Under the pieces are notes generated by a model. That model was not told the origin of the DNA and ran no database searches. It saw only the letters and a list, made by a program, of their open reading frames with translations. Below, in pieces: positions 3,909 through 51,700 of a stretch of 64,000 bases of DNA. Origin of the DNA: Pholiota molesta (lineage: Eukaryota; Basidiomycota; Agaricomycetes; Agaricales; Strophariaceae); assembly GCA_014925825.1 (NCBI GenBank), contig JACGCK010000084.1, forward strand, positions 1-64,000. Direction: 5' to 3'. A program made the translations under genes and the position numbers. Positions within the stretch are counted from its first letter, which is position 1, and each line of letters starts with the position of its first letter.

Positions 3909-5484
3909 ATGTCGCACGAAAAAGAAAACTCCAGAGATGTGTATATGGTCATTGGAGGCAATGGGTTCCTGGGACGCCATATCGTTCAACAGCTGCTAGC
4001 ACGGGGAGATATCGTGTCGGTGTTTGATATCGTAGCGCGCTATGACGACGTCAGTTTTTACTCTGGGGACATCAGCGACCAAGAGTCGGTAGCGTCCGCC
4101 TTGCGCAAAGTGCGTTTTTCCTGTCTTCGTTGAACCAGCACATTCTCATAATTAACGTCTGGTAGAGCGGCACGACATGTATCATCCACACCGCCTCTCC
4201 ACATGCGACACTAAAAGACCCCGCGATTTTCCACAAAGTGAATGTGCTAGGCACACAGGCCATTATCGCTGCCGCGGTGGAGACTGGCGTGCGCAAGCTC
4301 GTGTTCACGAGTTCCGCAGGTGTCGTGTTCAACGGTGGCGAGATTAAGGACGTCGACGAGCGCATCGCGTTCCCCGAGGTTCCTATGGATGCTTACAATG
4401 ATTCCAAGGCGAAGGCAGAGACCGCCGTCTTGGAGGCGAATGGCAAGGGTGGCCTCCTGACTGTCGCGCTCCGCCCCGCCGGAATTTTCGGGTATGTCCT
4501 GCCTGTTGAACCTAAAACTTGCTCCACATCATCTCACTTTCTTTCTATTGTTATACAGTCCTGGAGACCGCCAGGCTATGTCGGGTATGTACCAAGTATA
4601 CGAACGCGGGCAGACGCACTTCCAAATCGGCGACAACACCAACCTCTTCGACTGGACATACGTCGGAAACGTCGCACGCGCCCACCTCCTCGCCGCAGAC
4701 CGCCTCTCCACCCCACCACCCGCACCCCCGCTCGCCGAACGCGACCCGGAGAAGCTCCCCGCCTCCGCAGACGAGGTGCCCCCGCTCAGCGCCGCCGAGC
4801 TCGCGCTCATCACACCCTCCCTGCCCACCGTCGACCTCACGACGGGGCACCACCGCATCCCCACCTGCGACGCGCGCCCGCTCGGGCCGTACGTCACGCC
4901 CCCGCCCGACGCGGACAGGATCGCCGCGGCGTGGGCGGACCCCGCGGCCGCAGACGCCGCGCCGCGCCCGGTGATGCGCACGCGCTTCGACCAGCTGTCC
5001 GAGTACTCCCTGCAGCGCGCGAAGCTCGCGCGGCCCGACGTGAACCCGCTGCAGGTCGCGGGGCAGGTGTTCTTCATCACGAACGGGGAGCCGTGCTACT
5101 TCTGGGACTTCCCCCGGATGGTGTGGAATGAGCTGGACAAGTACTTCCCGGGGAAGCGGGCCCCGCGCGGCGTGTTCCAGCTGCCAAAGAGCGTGGGGAT
5201 GGCGGCGGCGGTGGGCTCGGAGTGGTTTGGGTATTTGACGGGCAAGGATGTGACGTTTACGCAGTTTAAGGTGACGTTTAGCTGTACGCCAAGGTTCCAT
5301 AATATTGAGAAGGCGCGGCGGATACTTGGGTACGAGCCGGAGGTGGGCGTCGAGGAGGGCGTGAAGCGTATGGTTGAGGTGAGTACTTGATTTGAGCTCA
5401 GGGATTGATGTGTCTGACGGTATTTCGTTGATGTAGTGGTGGTACGCCGACTATTTGGCCAACCAGAAGCAGTCATCGAAGTGA
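3909..5484 (+). CDS. ERG26: Sterol-4-alpha-carboxylate 3-dehydrogenase-like (ERG26 family), left copy
   Basis: Predicted 464 aa in four exons: 3909-4109, 4166-4491, 4559-5378, 5437-5484, all with GT-AG introns that keep frame. It belongs to the 3-beta-hydroxysteroid dehydrogenase/SDR fold. An N-terminal Rossmann motif IGGNGFLG (residues 15-22) follows VYMV, and the catalytic YxxxK appears as YNDSK (144-148). FQIGDNTNLFDWTYVGNVARAHL is the family's typical mid-region signature (quoted here in part: GDNTNLFDWTYVGN). ERG26 proteins oxidise and decarboxylate the C4-carboxyl sterol intermediate at the endoplasmic reticulum during ergosterol synthesis. A Pro/Ala-rich insertion (about 245-330) splits the C-terminal half. 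The start was chosen at the second in-frame ATG because MSHEKE directly precedes the Rossmann strand; an in-frame codon at 3873 would add 12 residues. Very GC-rich third exon. A close copy lies inverted at 23,034-24,640. Confidence 0.88.
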
Positions 5485-23033: not shown

Positions 23034-24640
23034 TTAGAAATTACAATGGATGTCCCACGATTTTGCCTGCGTGGCCAACAGGTCGGCATACCACCACTAC
23101 ATCAACGAAATATTGTCAGATGCAGTATTCCTTGAGCTCAAATCAAAAACTCACCTCAACCATACGCTTCACGCCCTCCTCGACACCGACTTCCGGCTCG
23201 TACCCAAGTACCCGCCGCGCCTTCTCCATATTATGGAATTGCGGCGTACAGCAAAACTTCACCACAGACCGTGTAAACGTCACATTTTTGCTGCCCATCA
23301 AATACCCAAACCACTCCGAGCGCGCCGCCGCCGCCATCCACACGCTCCTCGGATACTGGACCACGTCGCGCGGGGCGCGCTTCCCCGGGAAGTACTTGTC
23401 CAGCTCATTCCACACCATCCGCGGGAAGTCCCAGAAGTAGCACGGCTCCCCGTTCGTGATGAAGAACACCTGCCCCGCGACCTGCAGCGGGTGCGCGTCG
23501 GGCGCCGCGAGTTTCGCGCGCTGCAGGGCGTACTCGGACAGCGGGTCGAAGCGCGTGCGCACCACCGGGCGCGGCGCGGCGTCTGCGGCCGCGGGGTCCG
23601 CCCACGCCGCGGCGATCTTGTCCGCGTCGGGCGGGGGCGTGACGTACGGCCCGAGCGGGCGCGCGTCGCAGGTGGGGATGCGGTGGCGTCCTGTCGTGAG
23701 GTCGACGGTGGGCAAGGGGGGTGTGATGAGCGCAAGCTCGGCGGCGCTGAGGGGGGGCACCTCGTCTGCGGAGGCGGGGAGCTTCTCCGGGTTGCGTTCG
23801 GCGAGCGGGGGTGCGGGTGGTGGGGTGGAGAGGCGGTCTGCGGCGAGGAGGTGGGCGCGTGCGACGTTTCCGACGTATGTCCAGTCGAAGAGGTTGGTGT
23901 TGTCGCCGATTTGGTAGTGTGTTTGCCCGCGTAAGTATGCTTCGAGCAGAGCCAACATATCCTGGTGGTGGTGGTCTCCAGGACTGTATGACAATATGAA
24001 GAAAGTGAGATGATGTCAAGGAAGTTTTGAGGTTTAACGTTTAACAGCAGGACATACCCGAAAATTCCGGCGGGGCGGAGCACGACAGTCAGGAGGCCGC
24101 CCTTGCCGTTCGCCTCCAAGACGGCGGTCTCTTCCTTCGCCTTGGATTCGTTGTAAGCGTCCATAGGAACCTCAGGGAAGGCGATGCGCTCGTCGACGTC
24201 CTTGATCTCGCCACCGTTGAACACGACACCTGCGGAACTCGTGAACACGAGCTTGCGCACGCCAGTCTCCACCGCTGCAGCGATGATAGCCTTCGTGCCT
24301 TCCACATTCACCCCGTACAAAACGGAGGGGTTGAATAGTGTCGCACGGGCATAAGGGGTATGGATGATACACGTCGTGCCGCTCTGCCAGAAGTTGATTA
24401 TGCGAATGTGCTGGTGCAACGAAGACAGGAGAAACGCACTTTGCGCAAGGCGGACGCTACAGACTCTTGGTCGCTGATGTCCCCAGAGTAAAAAGTGACG
24501 TCGTCATAGCGCGCTACTATATCAAACACCGATACGATATCCCCCCGTGCTAGCAGCTGTTGTACGATATGGCGTCCCAGGAACCTGTTCCCTCCAATGA
24601 CCATATACACATCTCTGGGACTTTCTTTTTCGTGCGACAT
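23034..24640 (-). CDS. Sterol-4-alpha-carboxylate 3-dehydrogenase-like (ERG26 family), right copy
   Basis: Predicted 472 aa in four exons (minus): 24640-24440, 24383-24058, 23983-23155, 23096-23034, with introns in the same places and phases as in the left copy. Catalytic YxxxK is kept (YNESK). Three differences stand out. The Rossmann motif reads IGGNRFLG, with Arg at residue 19 where the left copy and the family have Gly. The region after the second strand reads HTPYARATLFNPSVLYGVNVEG instead of HTASPHATLKDPAIFHKVN (each quoted in part). The last exon ends with seven unrelated residues, WDIHCNF. Both copies are otherwise open throughout, so the gene is probably expressed or only recently free of selection. 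NAD binding may be impaired by the Gly to Arg change. Confidence 0.85.
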
Positions 24641-36600: not shown

Positions 36601-37219
36601 TGCAAATGTGTCTTAGAATGATAAACGGAATATCAGATCTGTTCGTACCTGTTCTAGTTTGGGAATATTCAACGGATTCATGATGTCGAACCTTTGCGAT
36701 GAAGTCCAAGTACAGATCTGTGATCATGTCATTTGTGATGAAGGAGTCATTGTAGCCTTTCTCATCTGTAGGCAGAGAGAAGCAAGCGAGATTATTCCGC
36801 TTAAAACCATGTTGACGTGCTGATTGAAAGCACGAAAGATAGTCGAGCATTCTTTGCCTATATTCAAGTAGGTGCAGCTCTAGTATTTGCGCATTAGAAC
36901 TTAGGCAATCATTCGAATATTACCACTCACGTTTTAGATGCTCCGATAGACCAGCAGAGGTTGAAGATAGTCGGAGCTCTGTAATCAAATCAAATAGCTC
37001 ATGGGTTACTGCAGCCCGTTTCAGGAAATATGGAACGCTTCCTAATAGTTAATTGCGAATAGATAAGCTAATTTCTTTAGGTAGAGTTAAAGGAAACTTA
37101 CTTGGGATTTTCCAATGCGGCCAATTATTCCAGAATACATGATTTGTCGTTACAAAGCAGTATCCTCCTTTCGTTCCATTTTTTTTGCAATCCTTGCATC
37201 GAAGCTGGAATCCTATTGC
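33668..37219 (-). pseudogene. DDE transposase-like gene, 5' end cut by LTR element
   Basis: Minus-strand multi-exon gene. From the N-terminal side it reads QLRCKDCKKNGTKGGYCFVT (a CxxC pair), HVFWNNWPHWKIP, LDYLSCFQSARQHGFKR, SLDNTFKSAGKASI, GGILSAVNEEGEGLSW, IIVDNCCQVRRF, LDVYHFMIWY, WSAAASKVHADQLEHVRKGC (20 residues), MDGSRIEGSHKGWNSIQR and HDFFLRRNIRIG. The D in LDNTF, the D in VDNCC and the E in RIEGSHKGWN are candidates for the acidic triad of an RNase H-fold transposase. I recall similar hypothetical proteins repeated in Agaricomycete genomes, but cannot name the superfamily. Its upstream part is missing because LTR element 1 abuts at 37,220. Remaining exons appear open, so most decay is the truncation. 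Confidence 0.6.
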
Positions 37220-37624
37220 TGTGACGACTGGATACTTAGGTACTTGTACAGAGGACTGTAGATCACATGATAGTCACATGTTACCATGTAGATACAGCCA
37301 TCCAGCTGTATTAGATAATCAGATTTACCTTTAACCTTTACTTGAAGGACGAATCCACACACTGCCGGTATGACCAGATAGTCTACTCCCTACCATGGGT
37401 CATATGGGGGCACAGGCGAGCCTTACCACGCAGATCTCTCTGGCTGAGCATCCATCCCTGCTTGCCTGGTCAACGGCTCACATTGCCCTGGATAGGGTCA
37501 CATTCCTCCTGAGTAGGATTACAACTCTCCCTCTCCCTGGATCTCCATCCAGCCCTCTCTCCAGGTCTCCTCCAGCCTTCCCTGAAGTCCCCTCGAATGC
37601 CAGATGCAGACCACAGGCATCACA
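37220..37624 (+). repeat. LTR, element 1 left
   Basis: 405 bp, TG...CA ends. Shares the GACGACTGGATAC variant with the right LTR of the same element, against GAGGACTGGACAC in element 2. It lies directly against the cut transposase-like gene. The 91-codon frame inside it is present in all four LTRs by copying and is not taken as a gene. Confidence 0.88.
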
Positions 37625-38140
37625 ATGGTGGGGGCACCGCGGACTTCTTTCCAAGAAGGTTTCAAGATGACCTGGCACTCCTTGCCTGTCCTCCCTTGGG
37701 TCTGTGGAGGTTGACTATGATGAGTAGTCCCCCCTAGGATCTAGGTCCTCTGAACCCCAGTGGGTTGACCTTTCAATGCCAGCTGGCATCTGATTGTGTC
37801 CCTACTAAGGGTTTGGGCTTAGGACTTGCTTAGGACTCTCTCCTTTCTTCTCCCCTTGGATTTCAGTGGGTTGACTGTCTCTGATAGTCCCTACTCATTT
37901 CTAAGGTTCCTCCTGACCCACAGTGGGTTGACATTTGTGCCAGCTGGTACTTGTGTCCCTACTCCTGGGTTGGACTCTATCTTTCTCCTTTTCCCTTTAT
38001 GCTCTCCCTTCACCTTTTTGCTATGCCCTTCACCCCTTTTCTACCTTCCCTCTGGTCCTAGGAATGCTCCTCAGCCAAGGAGTTCCTCTGGAATTGGACT
38101 TGTGATGATTTGGAAGGAAGATGATGATACTGGTTGGATT
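37625..38140 (+). repeat. Element 1 leader with short repeats
   Basis: After the primer-binding site come about four diverged repeats of 60-110 bp built on gtgggttgac, tgccagctggca and gtccctact. Element 2 has a corresponding but cleaner array (42,778-43,100). No open frame is kept between elements. Confidence 0.6.
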
Positions 38141-38145
38141 GATGG

Positions 38146-40750
38146 CCCCATATCTCCCCAACCACTCCTTAGATCGACAAGCGGATTTTTGCGGCTTGTA
38201 GCCCTCGTCGAAGCGATATCGAACGCGCCCTCGATGGCCCCAAACGACCCACCTTTGGGTGAGAAACAGATGCTGAGACATTTCAATGTCCTGAGACGAA
38301 ATCGATTCGTTCTCGCTTCCCAAACCTCGGACCATCAAGATCTCTTCGGATTCGAGCTCGTCTCATCCGTCCGGTTCTTTTGAGCCCAAGGTCGTTGAAT
38401 TCCGAGCGCAGGAAGCTTCCGAAATCTCTGCATGTCCTCATGCTCCTCTGTTCATGGTCTCAGAACAGAGATTCATCTGTTTCTCCCCAACTGCTCCATG
38501 GATCGTTAAGCGGTTTTTGGGTCCTGTAGCCCCCGTTAAATCGATATCGAACACGCCCTTGACGGTCCCAAACAGCCCACCTTTGGGTGAGAAACAGATG
38601 CTGAGACATTTCAATGTCCTGAGACGAAATCGATTCGTTCTCGCTTCCAAACCTCGGACCATCAAGATCTCTTCGGATTCGAGCTCGTCTCATCCGTCCG
38701 GTTCTTTCGAGTGCAAGATCGTTGAATTCCAAGCACAGAAAGGTTCCGAAATCTCTGCATGTCCTCATGCTCCTCTGTTCTTGTTCTAAGAACAGAGATG
38801 CATCTGTTTCTCCCCAGCCGTTTGATGGATTGCCAAGCGGTTTTTTGCGGCTTGTGGGCCTTGTCAAGTTGATATCGAATGCGCCTTCAATCGCCCCGAA
38901 CGTTCCACATTTGAGTGAGAAGCGGATGATGAGACATTTCGATGTCTTGAGACGAAATCGATTCGTTCTCGCCCCCCAGACCTCGGATATTTAAGGTCTC
39001 TTCGGATTCGAGCTCAGCTCATCCGTCCGGTTCTGGCGAGCCCAAGATCATCGAATTCGGAGCATACAACGTCTCCAAAATCTCCAATGTCCTCCTGCCC
39101 TTCTGTTCCTACTTTGAGGACAGAGATTCATCCGCTTCTCCTCAACAAGTCCACGGATCGTCAAGCGGTTTTTTGCGCTCCGTCGCGCCTGTCCAGGCGT
39201 TTCCAACGAGCCCCTGTGCGTGTCTAACAAGTGATTTCCAAGCGAGATATGGCCTTTGAGACATTTTGGTCTCCTAATGTGAAACCAAATTCGTTCTCAT
39301 GAACAGCTGCCCGTATCTGGATGATCTCTTCGGATTCGAGCTCGTCTCATCCATCCGGTTCTATCGAGCCCAAGATCATCCCATTCCGAGCAGAACAAGC
39401 CTCCGAAATATCGGCATGTCCTCATGCTCCTCCTTTGCTCCTGTTATGAGCAAACTCTGGCCATATCTCCGCAGCCGGTTCGTCTATCGTTACGAAACTT
39501 TTTGCGCTGGAAAGCCCTTGTTTTCCTCGTTCGAAAACGCCTTTGAACGTCCCAGACCGTTGCGCATTGCCCGAGCTATGACTTTACAGTCATCTCAGCC
39601 TCCTGAAGAGACATCAATTTCGTTCTCCGCACCCAGCACTCCTAGCTCTCCAAACTCTTTTGATTTGAGCTCGCCTACCCCGTCCGGTTCTAACGAGTAC
39701 AAGAACGTCCAATTCTATGCAGTAGATCATTCTGGGGGGCCCATTACCTCTTCCTCCCCTATGATCAGTTCCTAGAACACATATTGGACTATAACTCAGG
39801 AACCGGACCTGCGATTGTCTCGCGGTTTTTTGCGCTGTGCTGGGCTATGCAGGGCGCATCTTTCAAGCCCCTGCTCAAGCGAATCCATGGAGTCCTCGAT
39901 GAGGAGTGCACTTTTGCCTATTTTGGACCTCTGGTCCGAAATTTCGTTCGCTTTTGGCTTCCATCGCCTCTAGCCCTATTCTGCTTTGGGATTCAACTTC
40001 TCCTTCTTTGTCCGGTTCTAACGACACCCAAATCACCCTGTGTTGACCAGTGGAACACTCTGGGGGGCCCATCTTCATCCTTTCCCTCTATTTCTATCAC
40101 TAGAGCGAAGATTTGGCTGTCTCTCAAGAACCAGACCTCCGATTCCTTAGCGAATTTTTGCGGCTTGTTAGGCTACGCAGGCCGCTTCGAATAAGCCCTT
40201 GCGCAGGCCAAACGAACGAAATTCGAGCGAACTAGACCACATGTCTCATTTCAGTGCTCTAATCTGAGACGAAGTTCGCTCTTGGCAACCATGGCAGGTT
40301 CCCTTCTGGAGGCTTCGGATTTGTATTCGCCTCGACTCTCCGGTTCTATCGAGCTCAAGAACATGACGATCTATTCAGTGGAATATTCTGGGACATCATC
40401 CACTCCTCATCATTCCTTCCCACTTCATCATCAGGAGAGATTGGCCCATATCTTCGGAACAAAGCTTTCGATTCTCACGCGGTTTTTTGGCCCTTGTAAC
40501 GTTTGCGAAGACGCAACATTCAAGCCCTTACTCGCATGGAATGATGCATTTTCGAATTTACCATCCTCTTTCCTCCTCTTCCTACCCTTCAATGAAGATT
40601 GACCTATATCTCCGGAACGGCTGCTCCGTTTTCCACGCAATGTTTTTGGCTCTGTTACGATTTGAAGACGCATCTTTCAAGCCCTTATATGCGCAAAACG
40701 ACGAAGTTTCGAAAGTGCTAGGCTTTCCTTCCCTCCTGCTGAGCTCATTC
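38146..40750 (+). repeat. Tandem array of about 330 bp units, element 1
   Basis: Nine degenerate units in head-to-tail order, marked by the motif cggttttttgcg or variants at about 38,174, 38,510, 38,835, 39,163, 39,500, 39,820, 40,150, 40,480 and 40,640 (the last short). Each unit also carries gagacatttcgatgtcctga, ggattcgagctc, ccgtccggttct and a tgcatgtcctcatgctcctc block, in that order. The first three units are closest to each other and similarity falls toward the 3' end. Confidence 0.82.
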
Positions 40751-41513
40751 AGCATATCCTGACCAGTGGGCCTCTTTTCCTTTCCATTTTTATGCCTTCT
40801 CTTTGCTTTTTTCCACCTGCCAGAGTCCACTCTGTCCTTTCCTTCTTTCTTTCCACTCTGTGGCATTGGATTTTTCTTTTCCTCTTTTTCTTCCTTGGTA
40901 CTTCTTTAGCTGCCCAGTCCTAGACATGCCTCATCCTATGACCACTGTCTGGCCTGCACACCGAAAGAAGTGGGGGGCAGGGGTAGGGGGTAGGACCATG
41001 GGTCCTGAGGAGGCCTAGCCTCCTCCTATTACCCTATCTATCCCTATGTCTGGGATCAGGCTATGATCCCTTGGAGGAGCTGCCTTATGGCTATGCCCCT
41101 AGCTCCTCTAGGATGCTGGATTGGCTGACCCTCCTATATGGAGCAGGAAAGCTATCCTCTGCATCCTCTCAGATCCTTCTAGATCTGTAGAGCTAGTCTA
41201 GAGCTTTGCTCTGGCTCTTAGAGGATGCTTTAGGATTGGTTGACTCTCCTATCTGGAGTTAGGAAGCCATCCTCTATTCCCTCTTTGATCTCTTGTAGAT
41301 CTACCTTGGAAGGCTAGAGAATTTGGGAACCAAATTTTTTCTCTTTGCTTATTTTATTTTAGTTTATTCTTCCCAAAATTTTTACTTTATATATTCTTTT
41401 GGCCTAGTTTGGGGGGCCATTGTGATTCTTTTCTCTTTATTTTTACCTATATGTTTTATGCTTGTTTTCCATTTTCACTTAGAGTACATGCCCTCTGGAC
41501 AAGTGGGGGGCTC

Positions 41514-41918
41514 TGTGACGACTGGATACTTAGGTACTTGTACAGAGGACTGTAGATCACATGATAGTCACATGTTACCATGTAGATACAGCCATCCAGC
41601 TGTATTAGATAATCAGATTTACCTTTAACCTTTACTTGAAGGACGAATCCACACACTGCCGGTATGACCAGATAGTCTACTCCCTACCATGGGTCATATG
41701 GGGGCACAGGCGAGCCTTACCACGCAGATCTCTCTGGCTGAGCATCCATCCCTGCTTGCCTGGTCAACGGCTCACATTGCCCTGGATAGGGTCACATTCC
41801 TCCTGAGTAGGATTACAACTCTCCCTCTCCCTGGATCTCCATCCAGCCCTCTCTCCAGGTCTCCTCCAGCCTTCCCTGAAGTCCCCTCGAATGCCAGATG
41901 CAGACCACAGGCATCACA
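41514..41918 (+). repeat. LTR, element 1 right
   Basis: 405 bp, looks identical or nearly so to the LTR at 37,220. Followed by gtatactactcc, which belongs to a non-LTR retrotransposon fragment. Confidence 0.88.
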
Positions 41919-42322
41919 GTATACTACTCCACTTATCTCCAATTCTGTACCCATTATGCATGGTCTTCCAGAGAAACCCTCGCGCTCTTTTTGAAAGAAT
42001 GTTGCTTCTGATTGAGAGCCATATTTCCCTGTCTGTAGGGAATTTACCCGCTAGTTCCTTTATACTGTGTCTTGTTATATCTAGCCTGATTATTGTGTCT
42101 GTACGTGGTACTAATTTCTTTGTCAAATGCACTCCTTCATGGAGTGATGCCTGTGTTGATAAGAGGAGGCTCTGGCCAGTAGATTCATATTCTGGATGCA
42201 TACTTATGTTATGGTCGGCAGTGGGAGGGAGTTGAAGTGCTGCTTCAGCTCTGGCTTTAGCCATTTCCAATTCTTTTTTGTCTGTTCTTTCCAGATAGAT
42301 ATTGCCCTGATGGTAGCGGAGT
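41919..42322 (-). mobile_element. Non-LTR retrotransposon fragment, RNase H and zinc-binding end
   Basis: The minus strand encodes YHQGNIYLERTDKK, then further on REIWLSIRSNILSKRARGFL and WKTMHNGYRIGDKW. The last peptides are typical of the zinc-binding region downstream of RNase H in fungal LINE-like elements. The fragment is interrupted on its upstream side by LTR element 2 and continues at 47,356; its downstream side is cut by element 1. Confidence 0.65.
42318..42322. repeat. Target-site duplication of element 2, left copy
   Basis: ggagt immediately before the left LTR. The same five bases follow the right LTR at 47,356-47,360. Confidence 0.85.
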
Positions 42323-42727
42323 TGTGAGGACTGGACACTTAGGTACTTGTACAGAGGACTGTAGATCACATGATAGTCACATGTTACCATGTAGATACAG
42401 CCATCCAGCTGTATTAGATAATCAGATTTACCTTTAACCTTTACTTGAAGGACGAATCCACACACTGCCGGTATGACCAGATAGTCTACTCCCTACCATG
42501 GGTCATATGGGGGCACAGGCGAGCCTTACCACGCAGATCTCTCTGGCTGAGCATCCATCCCTGCTTGCCTGGTCAACGGCTCACATTGCCCTGGATAGGG
42601 TCACATTCCTCCTGAGTAGGATTACAACTCTCCCTCTCCCTGGATCTCCATCCAGCCCTCTCTCCAGGTCTCCTCCAGCCTTCCCTGAAGTCCCCTCGAA
42701 TGCCAGATGCAGACCACAGGCATCACA
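42323..42727 (+). repeat. LTR, element 2 left
   Basis: 405 bp with TG...CA ends; shares diagnostic bases with the LTR at 46,951. Confidence 0.88.
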
Positions 42728-42777
42728 ATGGTGGGGGCACCGCGGACTTCTCTCCAAGAAGGTTTCAAGATGACCTG

Positions 42778-43103
42778 GCACTCCTTTCCTTCTCCCCTCA
42801 GAATCAGTTGGGTTTGACTTGGTGCCAGGTGGCATTCTGAGTCCCTACTCCTTTCTGAGGTTCCTCCTGACCCACAGTTGGGTTGACATTGGTGCCAGCT
42901 GGCATACTAAGTCCCTACTTCTGGGTTGGCTCTCCTTTCCTTCTCCCCTCAGAAATCAGTTGGGTTTGACTTGGTGCCAGGTGGCATTCTGAGTCCCTAC
43001 TCCTTTCTGAGGTTCCTCCTGACCCACAGTTGGGTTGACATTGGTGCCAGCTGGCATACTAAGTCCCTACTTCTGGGTTGGTTCTCCTTTTCCCTTTATG
43101 CTC
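42778..43103 (+). repeat. Short tandem duplication in element 2 leader
   Basis: A block of about 163 bp (ctcctttccttctcccctca ... cttctgggttgg) occurs twice in a row with very few differences. Each block itself contains two diverged copies of a cagttgggtt/tgacttggtgccaggtggca unit. Element 1 has related but more diverged DNA here. Confidence 0.75.
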
Positions 43104-43249
43104 TCCCTTCTCCTTTTTGCTATGCCCTTCACCCCCTTTCCACCTTCCCTCTGGTCCTAGGAATGCTCCTCAGCCAAGGAGTTCCTCTGGAATTGGACTT
43201 ATGATGATTTGGAGGGAAGATGATGATTCTGGTTGGATTGATGGCCCCA

Positions 43250-46180
43250 TATCTCCCCAACCACTCCTTGGATCGACAAGCGGATTTTTGCGGCTTGTAG
43301 CCCTCGTCGAAGCGATATCGAACGCGCTCTTGATGGCCCCAAACGACCCACCTTTGGGTGAGAAACAGATGCTGAGACATTTCGATGTCCTGAGACGAAA
43401 TCGATTCGTTCTCGCCTTCCAGACCTCGGTCAATTACGATCTCTTCGGATTCGAGCTCTCCTCATCCGTCCGGTTCTTTCAAACCCAAGATCGTTGGATT
43501 CCGAGCACAGGAAGTCTCCGAAATCTCTGCATGTTCTCATGCTCCTCTGTTTCTGGTCTAAGAACAGAGATGCATCTGTTTCTCCCCAACTGCTCCATGG
43601 ATCGTTAAGCGGCTTTTTGCCCCTTGTAGCCCTCGTCAAATCGATATCAAACGCGCCCACGATGGCCCCAAACGACCCACCTTTGGGTGAGAAACAGATG
43701 CTGAGACATTTCGATGTCCTGAGACGAAATCGATTCGTTCTCGCTTCCCAAACCTCGGACCATTAAGATCTCTTCGGATTCGAGTTCGTCTCATCCGTCG
43801 GCTCTTTTGAGCCCAAGATCGTTGAATTCCGAGCACAGGAAGCTTCCGAAATCTCTGCATGTCCTCATGCCCCTCTGTTCATGGTCTCAGAACAGAGATT
43901 CATCTGTTTCTCCCCAACCGCTCCATGGATCGTTAAGCGGTCTTTTGGGTCCTGTAGCCCCCAATAAATCGATATCGAACACGCCCTTGACGGCCCCAAA
44001 CAGTCCACCTTTGGGTGAGAAACAGATGCTGAGACATTTCGATGTCCTGAGACGAAATCAATTCGTTCTCACCTTGCAGACCTCGGACAGCCAAGATCTT
44101 TTGGATTCGAGCTCGGCTCATCCGTCCGGTTCTTTCAAGCCCAAGATCGTTGAATTCCAAGCACAGAAAGGTTCCGAAATCTCTGCATGTCCTCATGCTC
44201 CTCTGTTCTTGTTCTAAGAACAGAGATGCATCTGTTTCTCCCCAGCCGTTCCATGGATTGCCAAGCGGTTTTTTGCGGCTTGTGGGCCTTGTCAAGTTGA
44301 TATCGAATGCGCCTTCAATCGCCCCGAACGTTCCACATTTGAGTGAGAAGCGGATGATGAGACATTTCGATGTCTTGAGACGAAATCGATTCGTTCTCGC
44401 CTCCCAGACCTCGGATATTTAAGGTCTCTTCGGATTCGAGCTCAGCTCATCCGTCCGGTTCTGGCGAGCCCAAGATCATCGAATTCGGAGCATACAACGT
44501 CTCCGAGATCTCCGATGTCCTCCTGCCCTTCTGTTCCTACTTTGAGGACAGAGATTCATCCGCTTCTCCTCAACAAGTCCACGGATCGTCAAGCGGTTTT
44601 TTGCGCTCAGTCGCGCCTGTCCAGGCGTTTCCAACGAGCCCCTGTGCGTGTCTAACAAGTGATTTCCAAGCGAGATATGGCCTTTGAGACATTTTGGTCT
44701 CCTAATGTGAAACCAAATTCGTTCTCATGAACAGCTGCCCGTATCTGGATGATCTCTTCGGATTCGAGCTCGTCTCATCCATCCGGTTCTATCGAGCCCA
44801 AGATCATCCCATTCCGAGCAGAACAAGCCTCCGAAATATCGGCATGTCCTCATGCTCCTCCTTTGCTCCTGTTATGAGCAAAGTCTGGCCATATCTCCGC
44901 AGCCGGTTCGTCTATCGTTACGAAACTTTTTGCGCTGGAAAGCCCTTGTTTTCCTCGTTCGAAAACGCCTTTGAACGTCCCAAACCGTTGTGCATCGCCC
45001 GAGCTATGACTTTACAGTCATCTCAGCCTCCTGAAGAGACATCAATTTCGTTCTCCGCACCCAGCGCTCCTAGCTCTCCAAACTCTTTTGATTTGAGCTC
45101 GCCTACCACGTCCGGTTCTAACGAGTACAAGAACGTCCAATTCTATGCAGTAGATCATTCTGGGGGGCCCATTACCTCTTCCTCCCCTATGATCAGTTCC
45201 TAGAACACATATTGGACTATAACTCAGGAACCGGACCTGCGATTGTCTCGCGATTTTTTGCGCTGTGCTGGGCTACGCAGGGCGCATCTTTTAAGCCCCT
45301 GCTTGAACGAATCCATGGAGTTCTCAATGAGGAGTGCACTTTTGCCTGTTTTGGACCTTTGGTCTGTAATTTCGTTCGCTTTTGGCTCCCATTGCCTCTA
45401 GCCCTATTCTGCTTCAGGATTCGACTTCTCCTTGTTTGTCCGGTTCTAACGACACCCAGAATTCCCTGTTTTGACCAGTGGAACACTCTGGGGGGCCCAT
45501 CTTCCTCCTTTCCCTCTATTTCTATCACTAGAGCGAAGATTTGGCTGTCTCTCAAGAACCAGACCTCCGATCCCTTAGCAAATTTTTGCAGCTTGTTAGG
45601 CTACGCAGGCCGCTTTGAATAAGCCCTTGCGCAGGCCAAACGAACGAAATTCGAGCGAACTAGACCACATGTCTCATTTCAGTGCTCTAATCTGAGACGA
45701 AGTTCGCTCTTGGCAACCATGGCAGGTTCCCTTCTGGAGGCTTCGGATTTGTATTCGCCTCGACTCTCCGGTTCTATCGAGCTCAAGAACATGACGATTT
45801 ATTCAGTGGAATATTCCGGGACATCATCCACTCCTCATCATTCCTTCCCACTTCATCATCAGGAAAGATTGGCACATATCTTCGGAACAAAGCTTTCGAT
45901 TCTCACGCGGTTTTTTTGGGCCTTGTAACGTTTGCGAAGACGCAACATTCAAGCCCTTACTCGCATGGAATGATGCATTTTCGAATTTACCATCCTCTTT
46001 CCTCCTCTTCCTACCCTTCAATGAAGATTGACCTATATCTCCAGAACGGCTGCTCCGTTTTCCACGCAAATTTTTTGGCTCTGTTACGATTGCGAAGACG
46101 CATCTTTCAAGCCCTTATATGCGCAAAACGACGAAGTTTCGAAAGTGCTAGGCTTTCCTTCCCTCCTGCTGAGCTCATTC
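43250..46180 (+). repeat. Tandem array of about 330 bp units, element 2
   Basis: Ten units with the core motif at about 43,285, 43,612, 43,939, 44,265, 44,594, 44,930, 45,250, 45,580, 45,908 and 46,072. Units two and three are very similar and together correspond to unit two of element 1, so the length difference between elements is a unit gain or loss. Downstream of it, 46,180-46,950 is a shared non-coding 3' region with several small foldbacks (for example ggatcaggctatgatccc). Confidence 0.82.
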
Positions 46181-46950
46181 AGCATATCCTGACCAGTGGG
46201 CCTCTTTTCCTTTCCATTTTTATGCCTTCTCTTTGCTTTTTTCCACCTGCCAGAGTCCACTCTGTCCTTTCCTTCTTTCTTTCCACTCTGTGGCATTGGA
46301 TTTTTCTTTTCCTCTTTTTCTTCCTTGGTACTTCTTTAGCTGCCCAGTCCTAGACATGCCTCATCCTATGACCACTGTCTGGCCTGCACACCGAAAAAAG
46401 TGGGGGGCAGGGGTAGGGGGTAGGACCATGGGTCCTGAGGAGGCCTAGCCTCCTCCTATTACCCTATCTATCCCTATGTCTGGGATCAGGCTATGATCCC
46501 TTGGAGGAGCTGCCTTATGGCTATGCCCCTAGCTCCTCTAGGATGCTGGATTGGCTGACCCTCCTATATGGAGCAGGAAAGCTATCCTCTGCATCCTCTC
46601 AGATCCTTCTAGATCTGTAGAGCTAGTCTAGAGCTTTGCTCTGGCTCTTAGAGGATGCCTTAGGATTGGTTGACTCTCCTATCTGGAGTTAGGAAGCCAT
46701 CCTCTATTCCCTCTTTGATCTCTTGTAGATCTACCTTGGAAGGCTAGAGAATTTGGGAACCAAATTTTTTCTCTTTGCTTATTTTGTTTTATTTTTGCTC
46801 ATTCTTCCCAAATTTTTACTTTATATATTCTTTTGGCCTAGTTTGGGGGGCCATTGTGATTCTTTTTTCTCTTTATTTTTACCCATATGTTTTATGCTTG
46901 TTTTCCATTTTCACTTAGAAGTACATGCCCTCTGGACAAGTGGGGGGCTC

Positions 46951-47355
46951 TGTGAGGACTGGACACTTAGGTACTTGTACAGAGGACTGTAGATCACATG
47001 ATAGTCACATGTTACCATGTAGATACAGCCATCCAGCTGTATTAGATAATCAGATTTACCTTTAACCTTTACTTGAAGGACGAATCCACACACTGCCGGT
47101 ATGACCAGATAGTCTACTCCCTACCATGGGTCATATGGGGGCACAGGCGAGCCTTACCACGCAGATCTCTCTGGCTGAGCATCCATCCCTGCTTGCCTGG
47201 TCAACGGCTCACATTGCCCTGGATAGGGTCACATTCCTCCTGAGTAGGATTACAACTCTCCCTCTCCCTGGATCTCCATCCAGCCCTCTCTCCAGGTCTC
47301 CTCCAGCCTTCCCTGAAGTCCCCTCGAATGCCAGATGCAGACCACAGGCATCACA
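46951..47355 (+). repeat. LTR, element 2 right
   Basis: 405 bp, preceded by the purine tract aagtggggggctc and followed by the ggagt target duplication. Confidence 0.88.
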
Positions 47356-48769: not shown

Positions 48770-51700
48770 TCACTTCGAGGGACCTGCCTGACCATCACTA
48801 CGGGCGCGAGATGGATCGTCCTGAGGCGGATGAGCGGCTTGTGCATTGGGCGCCAGATAATGGCCGTAGGGGTTAGGGTACATAGGCGGGCCTTGAGGCG
48901 CCCAGTAGCCGCCACCATGCTGCGGAGGGCCAGACGTCTGAGCGTTGGACGTTGGGGGTTCTTGAGGCACCCAGTAGCCGCCACCATGCTGCGGCGGGCC
49001 AGACATCTGAGCGTTGGACGTTGGGGGTTGCTGTGGAATTCCAGGTCCAGACGGGTACCAGCCTTGCCCAGGAGCCAGGCCCCAATTATTAGCGGAGGGG
49101 TGGTGTTCGGGAGGAGGCGGAGCATATCGGCTACCGTACGCATCGGGATACGCAGCGTAGTTTGCAGGATAGAAGGTCTCCTGTCCTTGCCTGAACGCTG
49201 GTGGCTGAGGATTTGGAAGGCGATCCATGATCTGCGGCTGAGGGACGCGTGGCTGGCCGGATTCCGTAGGAAAGGCCTCCTGTCCCTGCCTGAATGCTGA
49301 TGGCTGAGGATTTGGAAGGCGATCCATGACCTGCTGCTGAGGGACGAGCGGCTGGGATTCGGTAGGAGGCGGCTGATTGTTGGAGGGCGCTGGAGCAGGT
49401 GGCGCAGGCATGGCATCGGCAAGGGGGATGGATGGTCTAACAGGCTCAGGACGCAGTGGCTGCTCGCTGTGGATGGCGGGAGCGAGCTTGGGGGCTGGGT
49501 CGGCGTCCGTGTGTACAGCCGCAGCAGACGCAGATGCAGACGCAGATGCAGATGCCGTTGACTTTGGCATCTCCTTGGCGCGATGAAGGCCACCAAACAG
49601 CGTCTCCGCCAATTTGTCTGTTGCGCTGCCTTCTGCAGTAGGCTTGCTGTCAGTAGGCTTCTTGTCGCCTTTCTTCCCAGATTTCAATTTGGATGGCTTA
49701 GGGGTAGCATCGAGTACAATGATCGAGGCTGGATGCAGTATCATATTAGCGGTGCATCACCTGGAGATTCAAAGTGATCCGGACCTTCAGATGCTTCGCC
49801 CTCGTCTTCGCTCGATGAGTGTGCAGGCTTTTTGACGCGTCGCTTCGACGCGCCTAAAGGCAGTGTGATTAGCTTGAAAAATCATATGAAAATGTTATGC
49901 CGACCACGTACCCTGCTTCGTCTGGGTCCTTTTGCGTTTATTCCTGAGAAGATGGGGAGAGCGTGTAATCGGCATGTCATCGTCAGGGCATGAATACTGA
50001 GCCGATCCTTCCTGTGAGGAGTCGTAGGGTGCGTCGGTCGGTTCGTCTGCTTCCACGAACTGCACTTTGGGCTTGGCTTTGGACGTGGGCTTGCCTTTTA
50101 AATTGGACGTGAGCTTTTTTTTCTTGGTCTTGGGCTCGGTATCTTCATCTGGAACCTCACCATCTGGGGCATCGTCGAGCTGGCACATAGGCACGTTGGA
50201 TCCCTCCTCCGCTTTGACTTTCTTGGATAAAGTGGATGGCTCCTTCTTGGACGTACGGCCTACGGCCTTCTGAGCTTTTGACGTCGTGGTAGCTTTGATG
50301 AGACGAGGAGGCCCTTGGCGATCTTCATTCAGATTCTTGTCGAGGAATTTTCGCCGGCCGTATGCATGTGGCGAAGTCGAATCGGGGGGAACGCCTATAA
50401 TAACGGGCATGTCTATAGGGACGGCTGCAAAGCATAAGTCATATGTGTGCGTTGGTAAAGGACATCCCTCATACCTGATGCGTATTGCCTCTCGATCACA
50501 AGCGGATGAGTGGGGTGGCTGAACGCTGCGGAGAGGAGAGCACGGGCCGGCAGTTTCAAAACCGAGATCCCTTTAGAGGCGTTTTTGCCCGCCTCATCAC
50601 AAGGGAAGGGCACGTCCTCAGGCCAATTCAAAAGCACGCAGCCTGCGTCCGCAATGACCTGTGGAAGCGCCCTCCACAAAAGTCCCGGCCCTTTGGTGAC
50701 GGTGATTTTATGATGTGCTGGAAATAAATGTTAGGCTGTCGTCGCTACGGCAATTAACTTCAACTTACAGGCCAAGCGAATGAACTTTTCCCGAAGCTCA
50801 TGAATCGTCGGCACCGCTGCCTCTCCAACTGGGGTCGGCTCCTTCTTTTCAAGTACGCCGTTGGCGGAAGTGGCGTCTCGTGGAAGATCTTCGCCATCTT
50901 CTAGCAGCGCTCACTTGGATAGACGGTCACTGCATTGTCCACATTAGCACCAAAGTCAAATTATATTTGATGACGACCTACAAAACATGAGCCTTCATCC
51001 TTCCCATCGCAGTAACGTCAGAAGAGCCATAGCGCTCCAAGAAGAACTGTAAAAGCCAATGAGTAAAAATGGATGAAAATCAGCACTAATACACCCACAT
51101 CAATCGTTGCGTCACTTCCAAAAACCTGGGCAAGAGCTTGATCCTGGCTCACGACACCGCCCACCGCAATGCAGAGGGTCTCGAATCCATGCATGTTGGA
51201 TGCCTGTCGAATCTGCGCAACATGAGCCGAGGGTGATAGGACAAACGTGCTCGAATAATCATACCACACTGCCCATCTTATCCGTATGCTTCTTGAAATC
51301 GCGGGTGCGCTTGGCGAAGGACACATCGGCTCTGTCCGACATGAGCCGGAGGCGATGCCATGACCGCAAGACCTGGTCGTAGGAGTCAGGACTGGCGGCT
51401 TTGAAGCGTTCGTAGCAGGAGGCGATGGTCGCTTTAGTAGGTAGGCCGCCGGCTAGAGTAATATTACGGCCAAATTAGCATCCAATCTTACAGCAACGGC
51501 TAAGCAACTCACCGAGGGCCTGCTTTTCAAGAGGGAGTCGAGCTAACTCATCTGCACGTTGCGCTTCGAAGTAACTTTGATAGATGTTCCAGGAGCTGGA
51601 CAAGCGGGCTTTGGTGACATCCCAGCGCTCGACAATCTGAGTCGGAGACAACCCGGTCTTGGCGCCGATCTCTTTAAGAAGGAGATCAAGGTCATGGAAC

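What the first reader, a model, noticed from the sequence alone, without database searches (positions are those of the whole stretch)
37220..47355. LTR retrotransposons whose cargo is a tandem array of about 330 bp units
Two complete elements with clean 405 bp LTRs, primer-binding site and purine tract have no gag-pol; instead about 2.6-2.9 kb of each interior is a head-to-tail array of 9 or 10 units. Known non-autonomous classes (TRIM, LARD, TR-GAG) are defined by short, long non-coding or gag-only interiors; an array-filled interior is less usual. Possible roles are packaging signals, structured RNA, or seeds for satellite DNA.
Basis: partly seen in the sequence, partly recalled or inferred. 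Interest (0 to 1): 0.8.

Follow-up and report, generated by a model that had tools for sequence, protein, structure and literature searches.

The report
Mushroom retrotransposon carrying a satellite-like array
A mushroom genome carries a recently active family of jumping elements that seem to encode no proteins and are filled instead with an old, evenly spaced array of repeated DNA, so they are probably copied by other elements' enzymes and may need the array for that.

Summary
Window 37220-41918 (E1) and 42323-47355 (E2) are LTR retrotransposons with identical 405-bp LTR pairs, an 18-nt primer site perfectly complementary to the host's tRNA-Phe(GAA), a GTGGGGGGCTC purine tract and no gag-pol. 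About two thirds of each interior is a head-to-tail array. Of 18 complete copies examined in this genome (inferred: Pholiota molesta, Agaricales), 18 carry the array, 14 have identical LTR pairs and 15 have 5-bp target duplications. The ~328-bp unit is probably an old dimer (~158 + ~170 bp; weak but consistent homology). The array is a fixed, polarised ladder: similar 5' units vary in number, while 3' units only ~50% identical to them keep their spacing (328.2 +/- 1.6 bp) and are 93-97% identical between two subfamilies with strongly diverged LTR bodies. Tests found no coding signal, no conserved RNA fold, no 10-11-bp helical period and no free satellite copies. Best reading: a trans-mobilised element whose array is a spacing-constrained cis-acting region, comparable in role to the VNTR of LAVA elements; this function is inferred. 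Plant Retand/Ogre elements already carry internal arrays, so this is a new variant of a known kind.

The parts
37220..37624 (+). E1 5' LTR (TGTGACG...ATCACA, 405 bp)
   Evidence: identical to 41514-41918, 405/405; genome copies
37626..37643 (+). E1 primer-binding site, complementary to tRNA-Phe(GAA)
   Evidence: 18 of 18 matches to the 3' end + CCA of a genomic tRNA-Phe gene
37644..38152 (+). E1 leader, about 78% identical to the E2 leader
38153..40715 (+). E1 array: 7 full units of about 328 bp + 2 short units of about 158 bp (16 half-units by the model)
40716..41500 (+). E1 tail, found in the 13 other subfamily-A copies and, more diverged, in the 4 B copies
41501..41513 (+). E1 polypurine tract (AAGTGGGGGGCTC)
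41514..41918 (+). E1 3' LTR
42323..42727 (+). E2 5' LTR (405 bp); TSD GGAGT just before it
42729..42746 (+). E2 primer-binding site, complementary to tRNA-Phe(GAA)
42747..43251 (+). E2 leader with its own short tandem repeats (70/152 bp, 42776-43090)
43252..46145 (+). E2 array: 8 full units + 2 short units (18 half-units by the model)
46146..46937 (+). E2 tail
46938..46950 (+). E2 polypurine tract
46951..47355 (+). E2 3' LTR; TSD GGAGT just after it

Best explanation
E1 and E2 belong to a recently active family of non-autonomous LTR retrotransposons. They are transcribed from their LTRs, primed by tRNA-Phe, and copied and integrated in trans by the proteins of other tRNA-Phe-primed elements in the same genome. 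Their interior is an old array of ~328-bp units, each probably a dimer of nucleosome-sized (~158 and ~170 bp) halves. Unit number changes in register, mainly among the 5' units, probably by template switching between repeats during reverse transcription. The array is not passive filler: it acts as a cis-acting nucleic-acid region in which regular spacing of short conserved sequence blocks matters, most likely by giving many copies of a binding site to a partner protein (Gag or integrase, or a host factor) and so making the element a good substrate for trans-mobilisation, as the VNTR does in LAVA. SHOWN: anatomy, presence in 18 of 18 complete copies, recent mobility, PBS-tRNA match, absence of coding signal, orthology of array positions between subfamilies, depletion of indels in the full units. 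SUPPORTED BUT WEAK: the dimer. INFERRED: trans-mobilisation and its partner, template switching, and the cis-acting role.
For: All 18 complete copies examined carry the array, with 7-10 full and 2-3 short units. 14 of 18 LTR pairs are identical. PBS is 18/18 to tRNA-Phe. Of 10 other places with that PBS I read three; all three also share the LTR 3' end (26-41-nt matches), and the C99 one has a long gag-like frame with a CCHC knuckle recognised by eye. Array positions are orthologous between subfamilies A and B (86-97% identity per position in the pair C600/C26) while paralogous positions fall to ~50%; beyond the first 64 bp LTRs A and B align at 50% against 42.5 +/- 2.5% for 20 shuffles. Unit spacing is 328.2 +/- 1.57 bp over 139 intervals, and 27 paralogous pairs show 2.0 indels each against about 35 expected at an assumed 0.15 indels per substitution (measured tail rates 0.15-0.21). 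In C600/C26 there are 5 indels per 150 substitutions in full units against 12 per 63 in the tail (Fisher p = 0.001), and fewer substitutions than in the tail (106/2270 against 63/772, first class left out, p = 0.0005). Precedent: the LAVA VNTR determines trans-mobilisation efficiency (PMC4432496, passages read).
Against: No autonomous partner with the same LTR body was found; the shared features are the PBS, the LTR 3' end and a similar terminus, and 7 of the 10 other PBS places were not read. Array positions descend from one ancestral array, so the 139 spacings and the paralogous pairs are not independent. The short 3' units do not show the indel depletion (0.11-0.25 indels per substitution in four A/B pairs, one event in each being a whole 158-bp unit). 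The tail may be indel-prone because of its T-runs, which would inflate the expectation; at the array's own ortholog rate (5/150) about 7-8 indels per pair would be expected against 2.0 (my arithmetic). For a single pair, the chance of so small a length difference averages 0.046, not tiny. TRIMs in the same genome have no array. No expression, binding or mobilisation data were available, and no consensus fold marks a packaging structure.
Confidence: 0.45

Rival explanations
1. Neutral passenger: the array is a by-product of strand-transfer errors during reverse transcription, frozen in a successful lineage, with no function. Mobility depends only on LTR, PBS, leader and purine tract.
For: Internal arrays in plant LTR elements have been hypothesised to arise by such errors (PMC7004042 passages). 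Helenus-like TRIMs in this genome with the same purine tract and a similar LTR start are only about 675 bp long and have no array, so an array is not a general need. The short 3' units are not indel-depleted.
Against: Depletion of indels and reduced substitution in the full units relative to the tail. No array-less complete copy among 18, and a narrow range of 16-23 half-units (2 x full + short) although direct repeats should readily collapse.
Confidence: 0.3
2. Chromatin module: ~158/170-bp halves phase nucleosomes (328 bp = dinucleosome) over the inserted copy, for silencing, insulation or protection.
For: Half-unit length is near nucleosome repeat lengths (recalled); spacing is kept while sequence diverges; a run of at least four T recurs near the start of 43 of 44 full and short units in four elements.
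Against: No excess of 10-11-bp AT-dinucleotide periodicity over dinucleotide shuffles (46 of 150 and 21 of 150 shuffles reach the observed value; other periods, 9.5 and 12 bp, did exceed shuffles). Peaks in concatenated arrays can be harmonics of the repeat. No chromatin data.
Confidence: 0.15
3. Structured RNA array (packaging or dimerisation signals with a conserved fold).
For: A possible stem at unit columns 129-134/146-151 has 84% of cells paired and two compensatory pairs; 4 of 22 unit fold energies have z of -1.6 or lower, the lowest -2.95 on the minus strand.
Against: RNAalifold finds essentially nothing: -1.0 kcal/mol on the + strand (z = -0.7) and 0 on the - strand; 0 pairs for the half-unit alignment, + strand. 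The candidate stem ranks seventh of 27,719 windows, so it is not singled out. None of the 5 Rfam matches up to E = 5 reaches its family's threshold.
Confidence: 0.06
4. The array is, or was, protein-coding (captured gene or domain repeats).
For: Open frames up to 220 aa exist; one of 166 aa (39694-40191) matches a predicted protein on a 1,158-base metagenome contig (85% identity over 99%) and a Pholiota gene model.
Against: Variable columns in the 8 position classes fall 210, 211 and 229 over the three phases (sums); no lag-3 signal; that 166-aa frame has stops in 14 of 18 elements with substitutions even across codon positions; 328 is not a multiple of 3; no Pfam family above cut-off for 10 translations. 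The two 'homologs' look like translations of the same array.
Confidence: 0.02
5. Assembly artefact or chance repeat.
For: E1 lacks a target duplication and its 3' flank matches another contig.
Against: 18 complete copies on 17 contigs; 15 of 18 with 5-bp target duplications, all different from each other.
Confidence: 0.02

Closest known systems
Retand / Ogre (Tat lineage) Ty3-gypsy elements of plants
   Same: Tandem arrays inside the internal region of LTR retrotransposons, family-specific, with varying array length; some Retand members non-autonomous (PMC11963269, PMC7004042; passages read).
   Different: There the array lies between pol and the 3' LTR, and the region is described as hypervariable. 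Here there is no pol, the array is about two thirds of the interior, and it is conserved position by position between subfamilies. Fungus, not plant.
SVA / LAVA VNTR-composite retrotransposons of apes
   Same: Non-autonomous, mobilised in trans, with a central tandem-repeat domain in which some end units are conserved; in LAVA that domain determines mobilisation efficiency (PMC4432496; passages read).
   Different: Non-LTR, LINE-1-driven; SVA repeats of 30-50 bp; no LTR, PBS or purine tract (last point recalled).
LARD (large retrotransposon derivatives)
   Same: LTRs, PBS and purine tract around a long non-coding interior (definition recalled).
   Different: LARD interiors are not defined by an array; interiors here run from about 3.9 to 5.4 kb, partly below the usual size (recalled).
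TRIM, including Helenus (TRIM with tRNA-like LTR)
   Same: Non-autonomous; Helenus-like TRIMs in this same genome share the purine tract and the LTR start TGTGACG (PMC10886601 passages).
   Different: TRIMs are short (about 675 bp here) with no array; their PBS differs.

Membership tests
LTR retrotransposon | paired TG...CA LTRs | tested here: met
   405/405 in E1 and E2; 18 copies
LTR retrotransposon | PBS complementary to a host tRNA | tested here: met
   18/18 to tRNA-Phe(GAA), six gene copies in the genome
LTR retrotransposon | purine tract before the 3' LTR | tested here: met
   GTGGGGGGCTC
LTR retrotransposon | target-site duplication | tested here: met
   5 bp in 15 of 18 copies: 12 flagged plus C619, C26, C125 after a 1-bp boundary shift read from the same output; E1, C322, C4 lack it
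Non-autonomous LTR element | no gag-pol | tested here: met
   longest stop-to-stop frame inside E1 or E2 is 220 aa; 10 of the 36 frames listed there were scanned, none with a Pfam match above cut-off
TRIM | very short element and interior | tested here: not met
   4.7-6.3 kb
TR-GAG | gag-only interior | tested here: not met
   no frame of gag size, no Pfam match
LARD | long (usually >4 kb, recalled) conserved non-coding interior | tested here: inconclusive
   non-coding by these tests and conserved, but 3.9-5.4 kb (lengths)
Retand/Ogre (Tat) | array between pol and 3' LTR | tested here: not met
   array present, no pol
Retand/Ogre (Tat) | RT phylogeny in the Tat lineage | not testable with these tools
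   no RT in the element
VNTR-composite (SVA/LAVA) | non-LTR, LINE-driven | tested here: not met
   LTRs and PBS present
VNTR-composite (SVA/LAVA) | repeat domain needed for trans-mobilisation | not testable with these tools
   needs an assay
Satellite DNA | long free-standing arrays | tested here: not met
   117 matches on 22 contigs; LTR or tail sequence of the family in the fetched stretch on 21, only a leader piece on the 22nd, C168; collapsed satellites could be missed
Retrozyme / ribozyme array | self-cleaving ribozyme in the repeat | tested here: not met
   no ribozyme family among the 5 Rfam matches up to E = 5

The most novel reading that the evidence does not exclude
A class of non-autonomous LTR elements in which an evenly spaced array of nucleosome-sized half-units works as a molecular ruler: not its fold and hardly its sequence, but the spacing of short conserved blocks is under selection, because arrayed sites recruit a partner protein (or phase chromatin) and this decides which transcripts or copies are mobilised. 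The array would be a transferable mobility module that has been combined with two strongly diverged LTR bodies.
Probability: 0.25. Interest if true: 0.75.

Novelty: new variant of a known kind. Interest (0 to 1): 0.5.

Why it matters
What non-coding interiors do in non-autonomous LTR elements is open; for internal arrays, the Retand authors write that origin and function remain unknown (passage). Here 18 complete and mostly young copies carry an old array with natural variation in repeat number, two LTR bodies and indel depletion, so array dependence of mobilisation can be tested directly. It also gives a fungal case of a retrotransposon spreading satellite-like DNA.

Tried and rejected
Coding origin: rejected. 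An apparent codon-phase signal in single unit halves (8 of 10 and 12 of 17 substitutions in one phase) vanished when the variable columns of each class were counted. Conserved RNA structure: no support. Nucleosome-type 10-11-bp periodicity: spectral peaks in whole arrays can be harmonics of the repeat; the test on single units gave nothing in that band, with peaks at 9.5 and 12 bp left unexplained.

Dimer reading, results against it: pooled over eight aligned classes, lag 158 ranks only third (z = 2.2; lag 265 first, z = 4.4), and 158 is second, not first, in two of nine single units; in whole arrays it is among the top eight lags in four of six. A check after drafting, with a profile of A halves searched against B halves, scored above every shuffled control in 6 of 10 (5.6-17.7 bits, all at the same offset, over about 50-90 nt; shuffled maximum 2.5), but the reverse search did so in only 2 of 10. 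I therefore call the dimer probable.

Autonomous partner: the integrase search (150 of 208 candidates scored) placed none within about 10 kb downstream of the PBS places; the C99 element (L041, L047, L048) shares the PBS and the LTR 3' end but not the LTR body, and its 1000-aa frame has no Pfam match. A first tRNA pattern gave 0 matches; a second found tRNA-Phe. The unit profile gave at best E = 0.012 (5.2 bits, L045) and the half-unit model nothing in the other elements tried. ARAGORN at default found no tRNA in the TRIM stretches; only a relaxed run on one TRIM LTR gave tRNA-like calls. Paper searches returned 0 papers; one listed 2, 49 listed 12 and 71 listed 12 of 42, none matching by title and start of abstract.

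Dropped before counts: three fused units (E1.5, E2.6, C595.6) from the class counts; one of 28 paralogous pairs (divergence under 0.3) from the expectation; from the 18 complete copies, the incomplete or nested ones (C359, C564, C168, C604, C190, C259, second copy on C595) and single LTRs (C591, C608, C440, C95, C157).
Full report
The observation. The window holds two complete LTR retrotransposons. E1 (37220-41918) and E2 (42323-47355) each have identical 405-bp LTR pairs, a purine tract directly before the 3' LTR and a primer-binding site one base after the 5' LTR. The primer site is a perfect 18-nt complement of the 3' end plus CCA of tRNA-Phe(GAA), a gene found in six identical copies in the same assembly. 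E2 is flanked by the duplication GGAGT; E1 is not flanked by a duplication. The repeat tools find the ~328-bp periodicity at once.

Family-wide. A search of the 65.6-Mb assembly with the LTR gave 40 matches (40 of 53 candidates scored) and with one unit 117 matches on 22 contigs (40 of 42 candidates scored). I fetched the places and took 18 complete copies, E1 and E2 included: 14 of subfamily A (LTR 403-405 bp) and 4 of subfamily B (LTR about 425 bp). LTR pairs are identical in 14 of 18, differ by 1 base in 2, by 2 in 1 and by 7 plus gaps in 1. Five-base target duplications are present in 15 of 18, three of them after moving a boundary by one base; E1, C322 and C4 lack one. All 18 carry the array. 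Incomplete copies and single LTRs were not counted, and candidate lists are capped, so copy numbers are lower bounds.

Host. A window protein is closest to Agaricales proteins, best named hit Crassisporium at 51%. An array-derived protein is annotated in Pholiota molesta on a contig of 75,181 bases, exactly the length of contig C125 here. I infer that the genome is Pholiota molesta, family Strophariaceae.

Anatomy of the array. A profile of the unit finds 7-10 full units and 2-3 short units per element; the short units lie 158 bp apart in 20 of 24 intervals, 157-160 in the rest. Within single units, 158 bp is the best self-match lag in all six older units of copy C600 and in one of two tested in C26, and second in the other C26 unit and in C600.1, always weakly (32-40% identity). 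Pooled over aligned classes it ranks only third. A profile of first halves finds 6 of 10 second halves above all shuffled controls, at the same offset; the reverse search finds 2 of 10. The full unit is therefore probably an old dimer of ~158 and ~170 bp, and the 3' short units single halves. A sequence-only half-unit model, trained on both halves, finds 16 in E1, 18 in E2 and none elsewhere in the window. By 2 x full + short, the 18 elements have 16-23 half-units.

A fixed ladder. In E2, unit identities fall from 79-89% among the first four units to ~50% for the last ones, and each position has its own class, found in order in both subfamilies. In the A/B pair C600/C26 the same positions are 86-97% identical, the lowest being the variable first class and the others 93-97%. 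Copy number differs mainly in the first class. E1, E2 and C595 carry a fused unit (about 71% to its nearest class) that reads as an in-register deletion. Beyond the first 64 bp, the LTRs of A and B align at only 50%, though above the 42.5 +/- 2.5% of 20 shuffles, and their 3' ends are again alike.

Constraint on spacing. Successive full units are 328.2 +/- 1.57 bp apart (139 intervals, range 322-338). Twenty-seven of 28 paralogous pairs in one element (one under 30% divergence dropped) differ by 2.0 indels on average, where an assumed 0.15 indels per substitution predicts 35; length differences average 1.5 bp against 29.7 simulated, although for a single pair the chance of so small a difference averages 0.046. 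In C600/C26, indels per substitution are 5/150 in full units and 12/63 in the tail (p = 0.001). Three further A/B pairs gave tail rates of 0.15-0.21. The short units are not depleted (0.11-0.25, one event per pair being a whole 158-bp unit). Caveats: positions share one ancestry, and tail T-runs may raise the comparison rate.

What the tests did not find. No coding signal: variable columns in eight classes fall 210, 211 and 229 over the phases (sums), a 166-aa open frame of E1 is broken in 14 of 18 copies, and none of 10 translated frames (of 36 listed) has a Pfam match above cut-off. No conserved fold on either strand or for half-units; 18 of 22 unit fold energies have z above -1.6. None of 5 Rfam matches reaches threshold and none is a ribozyme. 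No 10-11-bp periodicity beyond shuffles. No free-standing arrays: of 22 contigs with matches, 21 also show LTR or tail sequence of the family in the fetched stretch and one (C168) only a leader piece.

Partners. The same 17-base PBS occurs 25 times exactly in the genome and 4 times with one mismatch, against 2 for the reversed control. Ten of these places lie outside the family. I read about 1 kb at three of them: all three share the PBS and the last bases of the LTR. The one on C99 continues into a gag-like frame of about 1000 codons in the stretch read, with a CCHC knuckle seen by eye and no Pfam match. It is a plausible kind of helper, not a proven partner; its LTR body is different.

How it most likely works. 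The copies are young and seem to encode nothing, so trans-mobilisation is the most reasonable route (inference). Strand transfer between co-packaged RNAs has been hypothesised for plant internal arrays (PMC7004042, passages) and would explain in-register gain and loss. The constraint argues for a role of the array itself. The closest tested precedent is the LAVA VNTR, which determines trans-mobilisation efficiency (PMC4432496, passages), although there repeat remodelling was placed at the DNA level. I therefore prefer an arrayed cis-acting region at about 45%, with a neutral passenger at 30% and a chromatin module at 15%. The late check of the dimer softened that claim but not these odds, which rest on spacing and conservation.

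Novelty. Internal arrays in LTR elements are known in plants (PMC11963269, PMC7004042; passages only). What appears new here is the fungus, the absence of gag-pol with the array as most of the interior, the ladder conserved across two LTR bodies, and the evidence of spacing constraint. My literature searches showed no fungal precedent, but they cover only openly licensed papers and I saw only listings there.

Noticed in passing
L043-L046, L050, L051 (C15, C163, C211, C333, C179, C445); L049 (C117): Very short LTR elements whose LTRs hold a tRNA-like sequence with A- and B-box-like motifs (recognised by eye; ARAGORN calls in one LTR only in a relaxed run, none at default). L044 measures 675 bp with 255-bp LTRs and the duplication GCTTC. 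They share the purine tract and LTR start with the array family and look like Helenus TRIMs; L049 is a different family of the same kind.
   Followed up: partly
window 37200-42322 against L010 (C595); L016 (C4) against L013 (C593): E1 lacks a target duplication; the 404 bp between E1 and E2 are identical on C595, where the copy just before them has the duplication GTATA. C4 likewise shares 8 bases of 3' flank with C593 and lacks a duplication. This suggests recombination between copies, or haplotypes.
   Followed up: partly
L047/L041 (C99:6480-8080): A tRNA-Phe-primed element with a gag-like frame appears to lie inside a tRNA-Gly-like gene (recognised from memory; ARAGORN found no tRNA in L047).
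   Followed up: no
window 42776-43090; L030 2020-2713: The leader has its own tandem repeats (70/152 bp in A, about 143 bp in B) with varying copy number; the 328-bp unit profile does not match them.
   Followed up: partly
whole elements, e.g. window 37220-41918 and 42323-47355: The RNA-sense strand is pyrimidine-rich (58.5% against 49-50% in the flanks).
   Followed up: partly
L036 and L035 (C359, C168): Interrupted arrays near long open frames (1190 and 1231 codons), probably later insertions.
   Followed up: no
L033 (C125): A public gene model (BJ912DRAFT_1002727, Pholiota molesta) appears to be a spurious annotation of array sequence.
   Followed up: partly
window 48892-49355: Tandem repeats of 69 and 99 bp inside a proline-rich open frame on the minus strand.
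   Followed up: no
window 4166-5390 (+) and 23143-24503 (-): Two similar genes in opposite orientation that look like 3-beta-hydroxysteroid dehydrogenase relatives (name recalled, not searched).
   Followed up: no
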